DNA of 7,258 bases. Source: Halobacteriales archaeon QS_5_70_15 (GTDB lineage: Archaea > Halobacteriota > Halobacteria > Halobacteriales > Haloarculaceae). The notes under the pieces are model-generated. The model saw only the letters and a program-made list of their open reading frames with translations, was not told the origin of the DNA and searched no databases. The position numbers were made by a program, and so were the translations under genes. The stretch's first letter is position 1; each line of letters begins with the position of its first letter. The stretch covers positions 1 to 7,258 of the forward strand of contig PXRQ01000028.1 in the NCBI GenBank assembly GCA_003022005.1, written 5' to 3'. Positions 1 to 6,418 of the stretch are shown piece after piece.

Positions 1-240
1 CGAAGACGCCGTGTTTCTCGTCGATGGATCGCACTCCTTGCAAGATGCTTGCCAACGGCACGGCTTCAATTTCAGATACGAGAAACATGGAAATCGGAAC
101 GCTGTTGAACGTATATTTAGAGAGATAAAAAATCGAACTATCTGTTTCTCAAACTGTTTCAGCAACGCCAACGCAGAAACAGCCGATGACTGGCTCAGAT
201 CGTTCAGCTTCGCATGGAATCAGCTTATCTGAACACTACC
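1..240 (+). mobile_element. 3' end of an IS6-family insertion sequence (partial)
   Basis: This stretch is clearly richer in A and T than the rest of the window and carries the transposase 3' end. The element probably ends at about 240: the transposase stop codon runs straight into ACACTACC (233-240), and GC-rich host-like sequence starts at 241. IS6 elements usually have the transposase stop just inside the terminal inverted repeat, so the terminus would read inward as GGTAGTGTTCAGAT. The other end lies outside the window, so neither the inverted repeat nor a target duplication (candidate right copy starting at 241) can be confirmed. The exact boundary is inferred. Confidence 0.6.
2..232 (+). 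CDS. IS6-family transposase, C-terminal 76 residues (partial)
   Basis: This is the C-terminal end of a DDE transposase that moves the insertion sequence. The reading frame is open to the window edge from base 2 (Glu-Asp-Ala-Val-Phe-Leu-Val-Asp-Gly), so the start and the first catalytic Asp lie outside. The Asp in LVDG is the likely second catalytic acid. The Glu in NAVERIFREIK is the likely third, because that pattern sits where IS6 proteins carry the catalytic Glu. The FSNCFSNANAETADDWLRSF tail ending in WNQLI is typical of the compact haloarchaeal IS6 (ISH) group. The frame is intact as far as seen, with TGA at 230-232. Base composition differs sharply from the neighbours, as expected for a mobile gene. 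Activity cannot be judged from a fragment. Confidence 0.85.
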   Translation, partial: EDAVFLVDGSHSLQDACQRHGFNFRYEKHGNRNAVERIFREIKNRTICFSNCFSNANAETADDWLRSFSFAWNQLI

Positions 241-294
241 GCGCCCGGGGAGGCCGGTTTTCGGACGCGTGTCGGGTTGGGACGTCAGGTGGGA

Positions 295-397
295 TGAAAG
301 GGGCCGCCTGCTCCGGGAAGCACGGCGAAGTAAGCACCGCAGGCCGAAGGCCGAGGAGCGCAGCGACCGCGCGACCGGAGCAGGCGGGGGCTTTCGA
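295..397 (+). repeat. Structured repeat unit, copy 1 (hairpin with terminal inverted repeats)
   Basis: The unit starts with TGAAAGGGGCCGCC (295-308) and ends with GGCGGGGGCTTTCGA (383-397). Its two ends pair with each other: 296-300 pairs with 391-395, then GGG faces GGG (301-303 against 388-390), then 304-316 pairs with 375-387 as 13 perfect Watson-Crick pairs. The interior includes a small GGCC-GAA-GGCC hairpin (342-352). A leader of about 15-20 bases before it (from ~277, containing ACGTCAGGTGGGA) is also shared with copy 2. After TCGA at 397 the similarity stops abruptly. It behaves like a short non-coding repeat or MITE-like unit. No coding potential is credible. Confidence 0.75.
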
Positions 398-439
398 GAC
401 GTTGCCAGCTGTTTCGCGGTAGACAACGAGAGGGACAGT

Positions 440-553
440 TCGAAAGCCCCCGCCCGTTCGGCTCCCGGGACTCGCTGTGGTCCTCGTGGCTCGCTTCGCT
501 CGCTCCTGCGGTCCTTGCGTCGTCCGGGTTCGCCGAGCGGGCGGCCCCTTTCA
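440..553 (-). repeat. Structured repeat unit, copy 2 (inverted relative to copy 1)
   Basis: Read on the minus strand this unit starts with the same 14 bases as copy 1 (540-553) and ends with the same 15 bases (440-454), while the interior has diverged and is 11 bases longer. It folds the same way: 442-446 pairs with 548-552, CCC faces CCC (447-449 against 545-547), then 450-462 pairs with 532-544 as 13 pairs, including one G-U (457/537). The interior contains the purine-rich minus-strand stretch GAGCGAGCGAAGCGAGC. The leader (minus strand ACGTCGGATGGGAC, 554-567) matches that of copy 1 with small indels. It lies 40 bases past the CBS gene stop and could shape that transcript's 3' end. Confidence 0.75.
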
Positions 554-592
554 GTCCCATCCGACGTAGCCCATCACACCACCCTCCTACAC

Positions 593-1408
593 CTACCGTC
601 CCTGGAGTCGTTCGGTCGTCTCCACCAGCGGGTGGTGTGCGTAGTCGACCTCCTTGATGTCCTCGATGGACTCGAGGTTCTCCTTGCGGGCGGTTTCGGC
701 CATCCCGAGCGCCACGGGCTCGTCGAGTACGATGACGTAGGCGTCCATCTCCTCGATACCGAGCCGTCGGGCGGCCTTCACCCGGTGGTGCCCGTCCGCG
801 AGCAGCAGCTCCTTCGAGCCGTCGCCGGTCACGGAGAGGGGGTTGTCGATGACGACCAGCGGCTCCGCGAGCCCGTTCTCGAGTTCGTAGCGCCGGCCCT
901 CGAGTTCGTCGGAGTAGACCTTCGTCTGCGTGGGGACGACGTCGTCGAGTCCGACCGTCCGGCGCTCCTCGGTCGCGCCGACCCCGTGGATGTTCTCGAG
1001 GGTACGCATCAGCTTCCCCACCTTCTCGGGGGTGGCCCGCTCGATCTGCGAGCGGATGACGTCCGCGTTCGAGATGATACCCACGAGGTTCCCCGTGTCG
1101 TCGACCACGGGGAGCTTCTGGATCCCCGACCGGAGGATCACCCGCGCGGCGTCGTTGACGCGCATGTCCGGGTGGGCGACGATCAGGTCGCGGGTAATCA
1201 CCGTAAACACGGGGGCGTCGTCGGGTTCGAGCAGGAGGTCGCGCGCGGAGACGAACCCCTCGACCCTGCGGCCGTTGGTCACCGGGAACCCCCCGTGCTC
1301 GCTCTCGGCGATCGCCTGCGCGACGTCGGCCACGGTGTCGTCGCCCGAGACGGTCTCGACATCCCGGGTCATGTAGTCCCTCACCCGTGGTTTGGCTCCG
1401 CGCTCCAT
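593..1408 (-). CDS. CBS-pair protein with C-terminal ParB/Srx-like domain
   Basis: This is a 271-residue soluble protein. Two CBS repeats occupy roughly residues 9-62 (VRDYMTRDVETV...GFVSARDLL) and 70-125 (ITRDLIVAHPDMRVNDAA...LVGIISNADVI), the classic adenine-nucleotide-binding Bateman module. Residues ~155-240 form a ParB/sulfiredoxin-like domain with the signature LLLADGHHRVKAARRLG, DGHHR at 205-209. Databases often label such proteins partition proteins, but there is no helix-turn-helix DNA-binding domain. The fold is shared with the free-serine kinases SerK and SbnI and with sulfiredoxin, so a small-molecule role is at least as likely. The start is ATG at 1406-1408, supported by a TATA-like box 25-32 bases upstream (leaderless). 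The stop is TAG at 593-595. It follows the DHH gene on the same strand but with its own promoter-like element. Domains are clear; the reaction is unknown. Confidence 0.85.
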   Translation of the reverse strand: MERGAKPRVRDYMTRDVETVSGDDTVADVAQAIAESEHGGFPVTNGRRVEGFVSARDLLLEPDDAPVFTVITRDLIVAHPDMRVNDAARVILRSGIQKLPVVDDTGNLVGIISNADVIRSQIERATPEKVGKLMRTLENIHGVGATEERRTVGLDDVVPTQTKVYSDELEGRRYELENGLAEPLVVIDNPLSVTGDGSKELLLADGHHRVKAARRLGIEEMDAYVIVLDEPVALGMAETARKENLESIEDIKEVDYAHHPLVETTERLQGR

Positions 1409-1519: not shown

Positions 1520-1600
1520 ATACGGTCGTGCGTACCGATGTACCGGCGATAACCCGGACAGGGTCGGGTATCGACGGGAAAAGACGACGCACGACCGTAT
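1520..1600. repeat. 81-bp nested palindrome between the DHH and CBS genes
   Basis: ATACGGTCGTGCGT (1520-1533) and ACGCACGACCGTAT (1587-1600) are a perfect 14-bp inverted repeat. Inside the 53-base loop a second hairpin pairs CGATAACCCG (1547-1556) with CGGGTATCG (1565-1573), with one bulged base and an 8-base loop. The right arm contains the first base of the DHH stop codon (1600-1602, TGA on the minus strand). A TTTT run on the minus strand (1579-1582) follows the stop. It could be a terminator or mRNA 3'-end structure for the DHH gene, or a small mobile remnant. The sequence alone does not decide. Confidence 0.65.
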
Positions 1601-4870: not shown

Positions 4871-6418
4871 CAGGAACCACCCCCGACGTTCAGCGTTACC
4901 TCACTCAGATCGATCACCGGGTTGACGGCGTCCTGTATCATGGCGAATATCAGCTCCGGGAACGTGCCCAGCGCGACGATGATCACGATGAGCGTCACCA
5001 GCGGGACCACGTCGTGGCGTGCGGCCCGCGTGATCTCGTAGTCCGTGTCGACCCGGAACGGGCCGAACAGCGTGCGCTGCATCGCCCACAGCAGGTAGCC
5101 GGCGACGATCACGATGCCGAACATCGCGACGGCCGTGAAGACCGCCATTCCGTCCCCGCCCAGCACCTCGGAGTTGAACGCGCCGACGAAGACGAAGAAC
5201 TCGCCGGCAAACCCGGCCATCAGCGGCAGGCCGGCGTAGCCGAACGCGCCCGCGACGAACGTCCCGACCGTGACGGGCATCCGCTCGGCGAGCCCGGCCA
5301 TGTCCCCCACCATCCGCGTGTGGGTGACGTTGTAGACCACGCCGACGCAGGCGAACATCAGCCCCGAGATGAGCCCGTGGGCCACCATCTGGAACGTCGC
5401 GCCGCCGAAGCCGTACGTGTTGTACGCGATCAGCCCGAGGATGACGTAGCCCATCGAGGAGACCGACGAGTAGGCGACGATGCGCTTGAGGTCCTGCTGG
5501 GCCAGCGCGAGGAACGCGCCGTAGATGACCGACACCACGGCGACGACGGCGATGGGCACCGCCCACGCCCGGGCGACCCCCGGGAGCATCGTGAAGTTGA
5601 ACCGCAGCAGCGCGTACGTCCCCATCTTCAGGAGCACGCCCGCCAGCAGCACGGAGATCGGCGTGGGCGCCTCGACGTGGGCGTCGGGCAGCCAGGTGTG
5701 GAACGGGACGATGGGCACCTTGACGCCGAAGCCGACGAACATGGCGATGAACGCCAGCGAGGCGAAGGCCGAGCCCGCCGAGTTCGCCGGCCCGCAGCGC
5801 GCCCGCGATGGCCGGCATGTCGAGGGTGGTGATCGAGTCCCCGAGCCCGAAGACGAGCCCGAAGAACCCGATGAACATCACCAGCGACGCGATGTTCGTG
5901 TAGACGAAGAACTTGATCGCGGCGTACCTCCGGCGGGGCCCGCCCCAGACGCCGACGAGGAAGTACATCGGCACGAGGACGGCCTCCCAGAAGACGAACC
6001 AGACGAGGAAGTCAAGCGCCGAGAAGACGCCGATCAGCGCCGCCTCCATGAACAGCACGAGGCCGTAGAACTGGCTCTCGCGCTCGTCGATGGGCGTCCA
6101 CGACGCCAGTATCGCGAGCGTCGTCAGCACCGTCGCGAGCAGGACCAGCGGCATCGAGACCCCGTCGAGGCCCACGTGCCAGTTTATGCCGTACGGACCG
6201 AGGGTGATCCATTCGGTCATCGTCTCGAAGGCGACGTCCGAATCGGGACCGGCGACCAGCGCGTTGCCGGCGCCGTCGAAGACGGCGTACATGTACAGCG
6301 AGACCAGCAGCGGCGCGAGGCTCCACCCCAGCGAGAGCTTCGGGGCGTACTCGTCGGGGAGGAAGAAGGTCACCACCGCCCCGAGCAGGCAGAGCGCGAT
6401 CAGCAGTTCGATCAGCAT
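4870..6418 (-). CDS. nuoM: Complex I-type oxidoreductase membrane subunit M (NuoM), frame disrupted
   Basis: This is an antiporter-like proton-pumping subunit. The sequence holds all of NuoM but in two frames. Residues 1-215 run from ATG 6416-6418 (MLIELLIALC...) to the Gly codon at 5774-5776. The rest (SAFASLAFIAMFVGFGVK... to VTLNVGGGS) is read one base out of step, ending at TGA 4870-4872. Removing one base near 5774-5776 joins them into 515 residues, the expected length. Family residues then fall where expected: Glu145 (FVFWEAVLVP), Lys233 (GFGVKVP), Lys264 (GVLLKMGTY), His347 (QMVAHGLISG) and Glu406 (MAGFAGEFF). Without correction the protein would carry a scrambled C-terminal half. nuoL ends immediately before (TAGATG) and nuoN overlaps by one base. 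Because respiration depends on this gene, a sequencing or assembly error is the likeliest explanation; a real mutation is possible. Confidence 0.9.
4877..4884 (-). promoter_or_regulatory. Shine-Dalgarno-like site for nuoN
   Basis: The minus strand reads GGGGGTGG at 4884-4877, six bases before the nuoN ATG, and is encoded within the last Gly codons of nuoM. It matches the archaeal GGAGGTGA consensus at 6 of 8 positions. With the TGATG overlap it suggests translational coupling of nuoN to nuoM. Confidence 0.5.
5770..5778 (-). other. Frame-disruption site in nuoM
   Basis: Between the frame-A peptide ALRAGELGG and the frame-B peptide SAFASLAF the minus strand reads GGCGGGCTCGGC. Dropping one G of the GGG at 5774-5776 gives GGC GGC TCG GCC TTC (Gly-Gly-Ser-Ala-Phe) and restores one open frame. 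Another single-base removal within a few bases would also work, so the exact base is not fixed. Confidence 0.8.

What the first reader, a model, noticed from the sequence alone, without database searches (positions are those of the whole stretch)
277..574. Two inverted repeat units whose hairpin stems covary
Units 295-397 and 440-553 (minus strand) share perfect 14-base and 15-base ends, but their interiors differ. Within each unit the two ends pair: 304-316 with 375-387, and 450-462 with 532-544. At three stem positions the copies differ yet both keep a pair: T309-A382 against C-G (539/455), C314-G377 against G-C (534/460), and G316-C375 against C-G (532/462). A fourth changes C-G to a G-U-type pair (457/537). 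This pattern argues that the folded form is maintained, as a structured RNA, a hairpin DNA element or a transposition end, and that this is not mere junk homology. A shared outer leader and an abrupt inner edge at TCGA define a unit with direction.
Basis: partly seen in the sequence, partly recalled or inferred. Interest (0 to 1): 0.72.

Follow-up and report, generated by a model that had tools for sequence, protein, structure and literature searches.

The report
Haloarchaeal mobile hairpin repeats, one-strand fold
The two matching hairpins are copies of a non-coding repeat found in many salt-loving archaea, often in dozens of copies, in which one DNA strand (or its RNA) seems to be under pressure to keep folding even though the paired letters keep changing.

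Summary
Units 295-397 (+) and 553-440 (-) belong to a very large haloarchaeal family. An exact two-ended pattern occurs in 76 of 391 genomes of the class (reversed control 0); a covariance model built from 44 copies (both window units among them) finds it in 41 of 59 genomes, over 50 copies in seven. Stem covariation is overwhelming. In 63 copies from two genomes not used for the model, 96-99% of pairs are standard, with 50 G-U against 6 A-C, so the constraint acts on one strand (leader first), as RNA or single-stranded DNA. The units travel at least partly as mobile DNA: in four genomes pairs of units sit head to head inside miniature elements with IS6-type ends and exact 8-bp duplications, and empty sites exist. 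The window's left edge is itself an IS6/ISH15-type element. No IS6-type ends were found around 104 of 113 copies, so how most spread is open. No Rfam family matches. The closest described kind is the ~110-bp 'small mobile repeats' of Haloquadratum; the model finds none in one Haloquadratum genome. One detail fails: pair 457/537 is A-C on unit B's own sense strand. Tandem tails spaced mostly in multiples of three remain unexplained.

The parts
1..240 (+). 3' end of an IS6-family (ISH15-like) insertion sequence: last 73 codons of the transposase and the right terminal repeat CTTATCTGAACACTACC (224-240)
   Evidence: blastn 91.5% over bases 5-240 to an annotated IS6 transposase on Haloglomus halophilum plasmid NZ_CP101167; terminal 40 bases identical to the Haloglomus copy, which is flanked by CAGCAGAC on both sides
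286..295 (+). leader of unit A (CAGGTGGGAT, family consensus GGG[T/C]GGGACT)
296..300 (+). outer helix of unit A, 5' side (GAAAG), pairs with 391-395
301..303 (+). GGG side of the GGG/GGG internal loop of unit A (partner 388-390)
304..316 (+). 5' arm of the stem of unit A (pairs with 375-387); 308-316 are the variable, covarying positions
317..374 (+). type-G interior of unit A
375..395 (+). 3' arm of unit A: stem 375-387, GGG 388-390, CTTTC 391-395
398..439 (.). 42-bp spacer between the tails of A and B (tail-to-tail pair; the only clear one among 113 copies)
440..462 (-). 3' arm of unit B (CTTTC = 442-446, GGG = 447-449, stem 450-462)
463..531 (-). type-G interior of unit B
532..552 (-). 5' arm of unit B (stem 544-532, GGG = 547-545, GAAAG = 552-548)
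553..562 (-). leader of unit B (GGATGGGACT), about 30 bp downstream of the stop codon of the CBS gene
593..1408 (-). neighbouring CBS-domain gene, read towards unit B
   Evidence: Pfam PF00571; homologous genes in haloarchaeal genomes, best 78% identical

Best explanation
The units are copies of a class-wide haloarchaeal family of short (about 90-115 bp) non-coding repeats. Each copy is a leader, GGG[T/C]GGGACT, followed by one long imperfect hairpin. SHOWN: the hairpin is kept on the leader-first strand. Its stem letters turn over by compensating changes, while the GGG/GGG loop and the purine-rich internal loops of the commoner (type G) interior stay nearly fixed. Copies lie between genes, in both orientations; genomes that have them carry from one to over a hundred; at the two places tested related species lack the copy. 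In four genomes two units sit head to head inside miniature elements with IS6-type ends and exact 8-bp target duplications. INFERRED: they are non-autonomous mobile elements. The fold is read as a single-stranded nucleic acid, more likely RNA than single-stranded DNA, in a step needed for their spread, so that only copies that fold leave descendants; IS6-type transposases carry some of them as passengers. NOT SHOWN: the molecule that recognises the fold, any transcript, and the way the copies without IS6 ends move.
For: Family size: strict pattern in 8 of 30 genomes and 76 of 391 (reversed control 0); leader plus 5' arm in 64 of 126, up to 63 copies, control 0; model R1 in 8 of 10 and 41 of 59 genomes, copy counts being floors because at most 150 or 62 candidates per genome were scored. 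Covariation: nine stem columns 96% Watson-Crick (924 of 963) in the 107 of 110 distinct units that fit the register; corrected mutual information 0.45-1.09 for paired columns against at most 0.33 for the 144 other column pairs; pairs with changes on both sides 19 of 32 (type G, 44 rows), 16 of 35 (type H, 25 rows), 20 and 21 of 32 (22 high-ranked and 20 lower-ranked G100 copies), 23 of 32 (21 G055 copies), 0 of 500 shuffles reaching any of these. One strand: G-U against A-C 24:1, 16:3 and 10:2 in those G100 and G055 sets and 20:3 in the nine-column stem. Internal loops less variable than helices in type G: entropy 0.44 against 0.64 and 0.28 against 0.53. Outer pair G-C of the strict copies replaced by C-G in 41 of 42 G100 copies. 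Mobility: empty sites at L191 in all six other genomes of the genus searched and no unit between the L166 flanks in seven relatives; exact 8-bp duplications at 8 of 23 IS6-type-end sites listed, and at L283; the Haloglomus IS6 element has the same kind of ends and an 8-bp duplication. 0 of 113 copies lie inside a called gene; 5 of 6 annotated plasmid copies are intergenic.
Against: IS6-type ends were found at only 9 of 113 strict copies, both ends at only 4. One search preferred partner ends whose flanks matched, and one of its eight exact cases (L266) has a poor right end. For copies outside such elements no junction or target duplication was found: at L166 the flanks are too diverged and four of the seven relatives hold other sequence there; at L140 the two flanking genes are not neighbours in relatives. 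The G-U excess is weaker in the mixed type-G alignment (32:12; 7 columns to 4) and in type H internal loops vary more than stems (0.60 against 0.36). The high-ranked G100 copies were chosen from the top of a model ranking, which leans towards G-U; the lower-ranked set gives 16:3, with 4 columns to 2. Ends look invariant in strict copies because the pattern demanded them. Orientation along genes is only slightly biased (50 against 27; p 0.012). 18 of 59 genomes have no match.
Confidence: 0.58

Rival explanations
1. A structured RNA that serves the host at each place: a 3'-UTR, processing, stability or attenuation element in messenger RNAs, with multiplication a by-product.
For: One-strand constraint and nearly fixed purine-rich internal loops in type G; unit B lies about 30 bp behind the CBS stop codon in the gene's direction; slight excess of copies co-directed with both neighbours, 50 against 27.
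Against: 20 of 111 copies lie between divergent genes and 14 between convergent ones; related species lack the copy at the two places tested; copies packed in IS6-type miniature elements. Whether particular neighbour genes recur was not tested.
Confidence: 0.2
2. Single-stranded DNA hairpins moved by a Y1 (HUH) transposase, as REP/BIME sequences are by RAYTs or PATEs by IS200/IS605 proteins.
For: Hairpin with a mismatched bubble, many intergenic copies, head-to-head and tandem arrangements, one-strand constraint.
Against: Y1 transposase genes do not follow the repeats: no Y1_Tnp match in G055, G021, G117, G002 and G045, which carry units, but matches in G007, G050 and the Haloquadratum genome G409, where the type-G model finds none. 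Where ends are known they are IS6-type repeats with 8-bp duplications.
Confidence: 0.14
3. Plain inverted-repeat DNA: the arms match because one arm is copied from the other during repair or replication, without any use of the fold.
For: Interiors are occasionally inverted between the arms (L126; also G244 in the listing) and tails are tandemly duplicated (11 of 113 copies), so exchange within the element happens.
Against: Such copying treats both strands alike and would not give 50 G-U against 6 A-C over the three single-genome sets, nor unpaired loops that vary less than the stems.
Confidence: 0.06

Closest known systems
Small mobile repeats SMR-A of Haloquadratum walsbyi (HqIRS42, 43, 55; PMC3119063, passages read)
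   Same: About 110 bp, prominent terminal inverted repeats, non-coding, up to 54 copies, sit in the palindromes of other mobile elements; mobilisation called enigmatic there.
   Different: Their letters were not available to compare; the type-G model finds nothing in one Haloquadratum metagenome-assembled genome (G409). Covariation, strand bias and a class-wide spread are not mentioned in the passages read. Here the host palindrome belongs to IS6-type miniature elements in the cases resolved.
MITEs of the IS6 family (ISH15-like)
   Same: IS6-type ends and 8-bp duplications around head-to-head units.
   Different: Found for a minority of copies; most units were seen without such ends.
Bacterial REP/BIME/REPIN repeats with RAYT
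   Same: Intergenic hairpins in many copies, inverted pairs and arrays.
   Different: Longer (about 100 bp against 20-40 in the abstract of PMC3733652, seen in the listing), hypervariable stems, no matching Y1 transposase distribution.
PATEs (palindrome-associated transposable elements)
   Same: Palindromes, no own transposase, haloarchaeal; one in Halobacterium is reported as an ncRNA (PMC10544981, passage read).
   Different: Longer in the example read (489 bp), without terminal inverted repeats, tied to IS605-type transposons.
Structured RNA families of Rfam 15
   Same: Covarying helices and nearly fixed loops.
   Different: No family matches the window or L105; one sub-threshold hit away from the units in five further loci.

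Membership tests
SMR-A small mobile repeats | about 110 bp with prominent terminal inverted repeats | tested here: met
   strict unit lengths 89-114 but for two longer, ends GAAAGGGGCCGC/GCGGGGGCTTTC; the search patterns themselves limited length and ends
SMR-A small mobile repeats | no target duplication | tested here: inconclusive
   filled and empty arms of IS6-type miniature elements differ by one unit next to short G runs; direction of change unknown
SMR-A small mobile repeats | insertion into palindromes of PATEs or IS605-type elements | tested here: inconclusive
   units sit in palindrome arms of IS6-type elements; IS605 or PATE context not tested
SMR-A small mobile repeats | sequence relation to HqIRS42/43/55 | tested here: inconclusive
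IS6-type MITE | terminal repeats of an IS6-family element | tested here: inconclusive
   found at 9 of 113 strict copies (both ends at 4), control windows 0 of 112; not found at the rest
IS6-type MITE | 8-bp target duplication | tested here: met
   exact at 8 of 23 sites with such ends (one, L266, with a poor right end) and at L283; holds for those elements only
REP/BIME with RAYT | cognate Y1 transposase in the genome | tested here: not met
   G055, G021, G117, G002 and G045 carry units without any Y1_Tnp match
Rfam RNA family | match to a curated covariance model | tested here: not met
structured RNA in general | covariation with one-strand wobble pattern | tested here: met
   would also fit single-stranded DNA
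structured RNA in general | a transcript | not testable with these tools
   no RNA data available

The most novel reading that the evidence does not exclude
A class-wide family of selfish structured RNAs in haloarchaea: the transcript of the leader-first strand is itself the replicating or targeting intermediate (an archaeal counterpart of SINE-like elements, or an RNA that recruits IS6-type or other machinery), which is why each copy keeps its fold while its stem sequence drifts, and why its 3' end is drawn out into tandem tails with spacing in threes.
Probability: 0.2. Interest if true: 0.88.

Novelty: new variant of a known kind. Interest (0 to 1): 0.62.

Why it matters
By these counts it would be among the commoner non-coding repeats of haloarchaea, it matches no Rfam family in the searches made, and it is a case of a dispersed repeat whose single-stranded fold is visibly under constraint. 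It gives a testable handle on the question, left open for Haloquadratum SMRs in 2011 (PMC3119063), of how transposase-free repeats of about 110 bp spread in haloarchaea, and a covariance model to find the copies.

Tried and rejected
Looked for the element in viral contigs (strict pattern, 0) and phage records (none). Rfam: nothing at the window or L105, one sub-threshold hit elsewhere in L172. Terminator or promoter reading: copies lie between co-directed, divergent and convergent genes alike, so not preferred. G-quadruplex reading of the leader: the second G run is only GG in a recurrent leader variant (GGGTGGACT/GGGTGGAT) and pairs with its mirror image in head-to-head copies, so dropped. 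RAYT-like mobiliser: not supported. Coding reading of the tail arrays, suggested by spacings in multiples of three (79 of 91) and three-base composition periodicity: dropped because every frame has stops and substitutions are equal by phase (49, 53, 60); the periodicity stays unexplained. Empty-site junction at L166: flanks too diverged. L140: flanking genes not adjacent in relatives. The long centre of the Haloglomus elements: at E 1e-20 found only in G004 among 12 genomes of the family, partial matches on 2 plasmids. Papers: the searches list no description of this motif by title or abstract; only PMC3119063 and PMC10544981 were opened (passages). Supplements were not readable here, so HqIRS sequences could not be compared.

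I also corrected the relatives at L166 (seven, not six) and L191 (six, not five).

Full report
CHECK. Unit A runs 295-397 on the plus strand and unit B 553-440 on the minus strand, with exact shared ends. Stem A pairs 13 of 13. Stem B pairs 12 of 13, the exception being 537/457, which is G-T on the plus strand but C-A on unit B's own sense strand.

SURROUNDINGS. Bases 1-240 are the 3' end of an IS6-family element close to one annotated on a Haloglomus halophilum plasmid (91.5%); the Haloglomus copy is flanked by the same 8 bases on both sides and its last 40 bases are identical to the window's. Unit B stands about 30 bp behind the stop codon of a CBS-domain gene. No whole genome is held for the window, and the closest CBS relatives found are 78% identical, so the host is not identified beyond the haloarchaea.

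THE FAMILY. A strict two-ended pattern was found in 8 of 30 and 76 of 391 genomes of the class, with none for the reversed control. The leader plus 5' arm, GGGYGGGAMTGAAAGGGGC, occurs in 64 of 126 genomes, up to 63 copies, control none. From the loci fetched up to then I took 113 copies (110 distinct units): 74 with one interior (type G), 29 with another (type H), 10 unclassified by that rule. A covariance model from 44 type-G rows, both window units included, matches in 8 of 10 and 41 of 59 genomes, with at least 106 copies in G004 and 104 in G100; these counts are floors because few candidates per genome were scored. It finds none in Halobacterium salinarum (G007) or in a Haloquadratum MAG (G409). 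BLAST shows related stretches on 42 plasmid records, those listed all haloarchaeal, none in phages; the strict pattern finds none in viral contigs.

COVARIATION. In 107 of 110 distinct units the nine stem positions inside the fixed ends are 96% Watson-Crick (924 of 963), with 58 different 5' arms. All nine paired column pairs stand above every one of the 144 other pairs in corrected mutual information. On alignments, 19 of 32 (type G), 16 of 35 (type H), 20 and 21 of 32 (G100, two sets) and 23 of 32 pairs (G055) change on both sides, beyond all 500 shuffles; covariation scores 0.26-0.49 compare with 0.007-0.100 in slid registers. In G100 the outermost pair is C-G in 41 of 42 copies where the strict copies have G-C, while the GGG/GGG loop is unchanged in the 22 copies checked.

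ONE STRAND. A palindrome kept at the level of double-stranded DNA should show G-T and A-C mismatches alike. Counts of G-U against A-C: 20:3 in the nine-column stem of the mixed set; 24:1 in 22 high-ranked and 16:3 in 20 lower-ranked copies of G100, 10:2 in 21 copies of G055; 7:0 in type H and 32:12 in the mixed type-G alignment. By columns the three single-genome sets give 10:0, 4:2 and 6:1, type H 6:0, type G 7:4. Alignments fitted to a structure, and ranking by the model, favour G-U; the nine-column register was chosen by Watson-Crick pairs only. I conclude that the leader-first strand is the one that folds. In type G the internal loops (GA, AA, A, GCA, GGG) vary less than the helices; in type H they vary more.

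MOBILITY. None of the 113 copies is inside a gene called by a simple codon-usage gene finder, and 5 of 6 annotated plasmid copies are intergenic (the sixth overlaps a hypothetical protein). At L191 the element is missing in all six other genomes of the genus searched (G107, G079, G337, G289, G167, G172). At L166 none of seven relatives has the unit between the same flanks: in two (G408, G403) the flanks lie 47-78 bp apart, one (G404) keeps a tail-like remnant, four hold 700-760 bp of other sequence. In G117, G079, G351 and G031 two units stand head to head around a short palindrome inside elements of about 310-420 bp whose ends GG[C/T]NGTGTTTAGTTAAG or GGTCGTGTTCAGATAAG are IS6-type, with exact 8-bp duplications (L248, L257, L263, L134, L272, L283); L134 and L248 read as the same insertion in two species. 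In all, 8 of 23 such end sites listed have exact duplications, four of them (L262, L266, L268, L271) in elements without two recognisable units. Within these elements either arm may be empty; the empty reading GGGTGGGGCTTTC or GGGCGGGGCTTTC was seen at 8 sites, one of them in another context; whether this is the state before insertion or after deletion is not known. IS6-type ends were found at only 9 of 113 strict copies. Elsewhere the leader is preceded by tandem 27-bp palindromes or, in Haloglomus, by a conserved centre of about 270 bp.

UNEXPLAINED. Behind 11 of 113 copies the 3' arm recurs in tandem. The tail motif pair is found at 44-66-base spacing in 13 of 24 genomes (three matches of the backward control in all). 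Of 91 distinct strings taken from that list, 79 have spacings divisible by three, and the spacers show three-base periodicity, but they are not coding.

READING. I take the family to be non-autonomous mobile repeats whose spread needs a folded single strand, RNA more likely than DNA. Y1 transposases do not track them. The closest described kind is the Haloquadratum SMR (PMC3119063, passages), whose mode of movement was called enigmatic; membership could not be tested by sequence. The searches list no account of this motif in the open-access library. That the tandem G-A loops resemble RNA non-canonical pairs is my recollection of RNA motifs, not a test.

Noticed in passing
window 1-240: 3' end of an IS6/ISH15-family insertion sequence with its right terminal repeat; the rest lies outside the window.
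   Followed up: yes
window 1520-1533 and 1587-1600: A perfect 14-bp inverted repeat between the CBS and DHH genes, unrelated to the units by eye.
   Followed up: no
window about 5780-5790: The nuoM-like frame looks broken: a 505-aa ORF (6418-4901) loses sense where a 290-aa ORF (5742-4870) carries on; sequencing error or decay.
   Followed up: no
L126 1500-1606 (minus) and G244:C1:494894: Interior of the unit inverted relative to its ends, as if the arms had recombined.
   Followed up: partly
L139, L143, L145, L103; arrays in G199, G021, G411, G320: Tandem repeats of the 3' arm with locus-specific spacers, spacing mostly a multiple of three.
   Followed up: partly
L279, L285 (G100): Several tandem 57-bp tail repeats, different at the two places, next to the units.
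   Followed up: no
L092-L108 (G004): A conserved centre of about 270 bp between head-to-head units in Haloglomus; the copy in L105 has no Rfam match.
   Followed up: partly
L247, L271, L268 (G320, G351): Very short IS6-type miniature elements of 90-122 bp without units; L271 has an exact 8-bp duplication, L247 7 of 8.
   Followed up: partly
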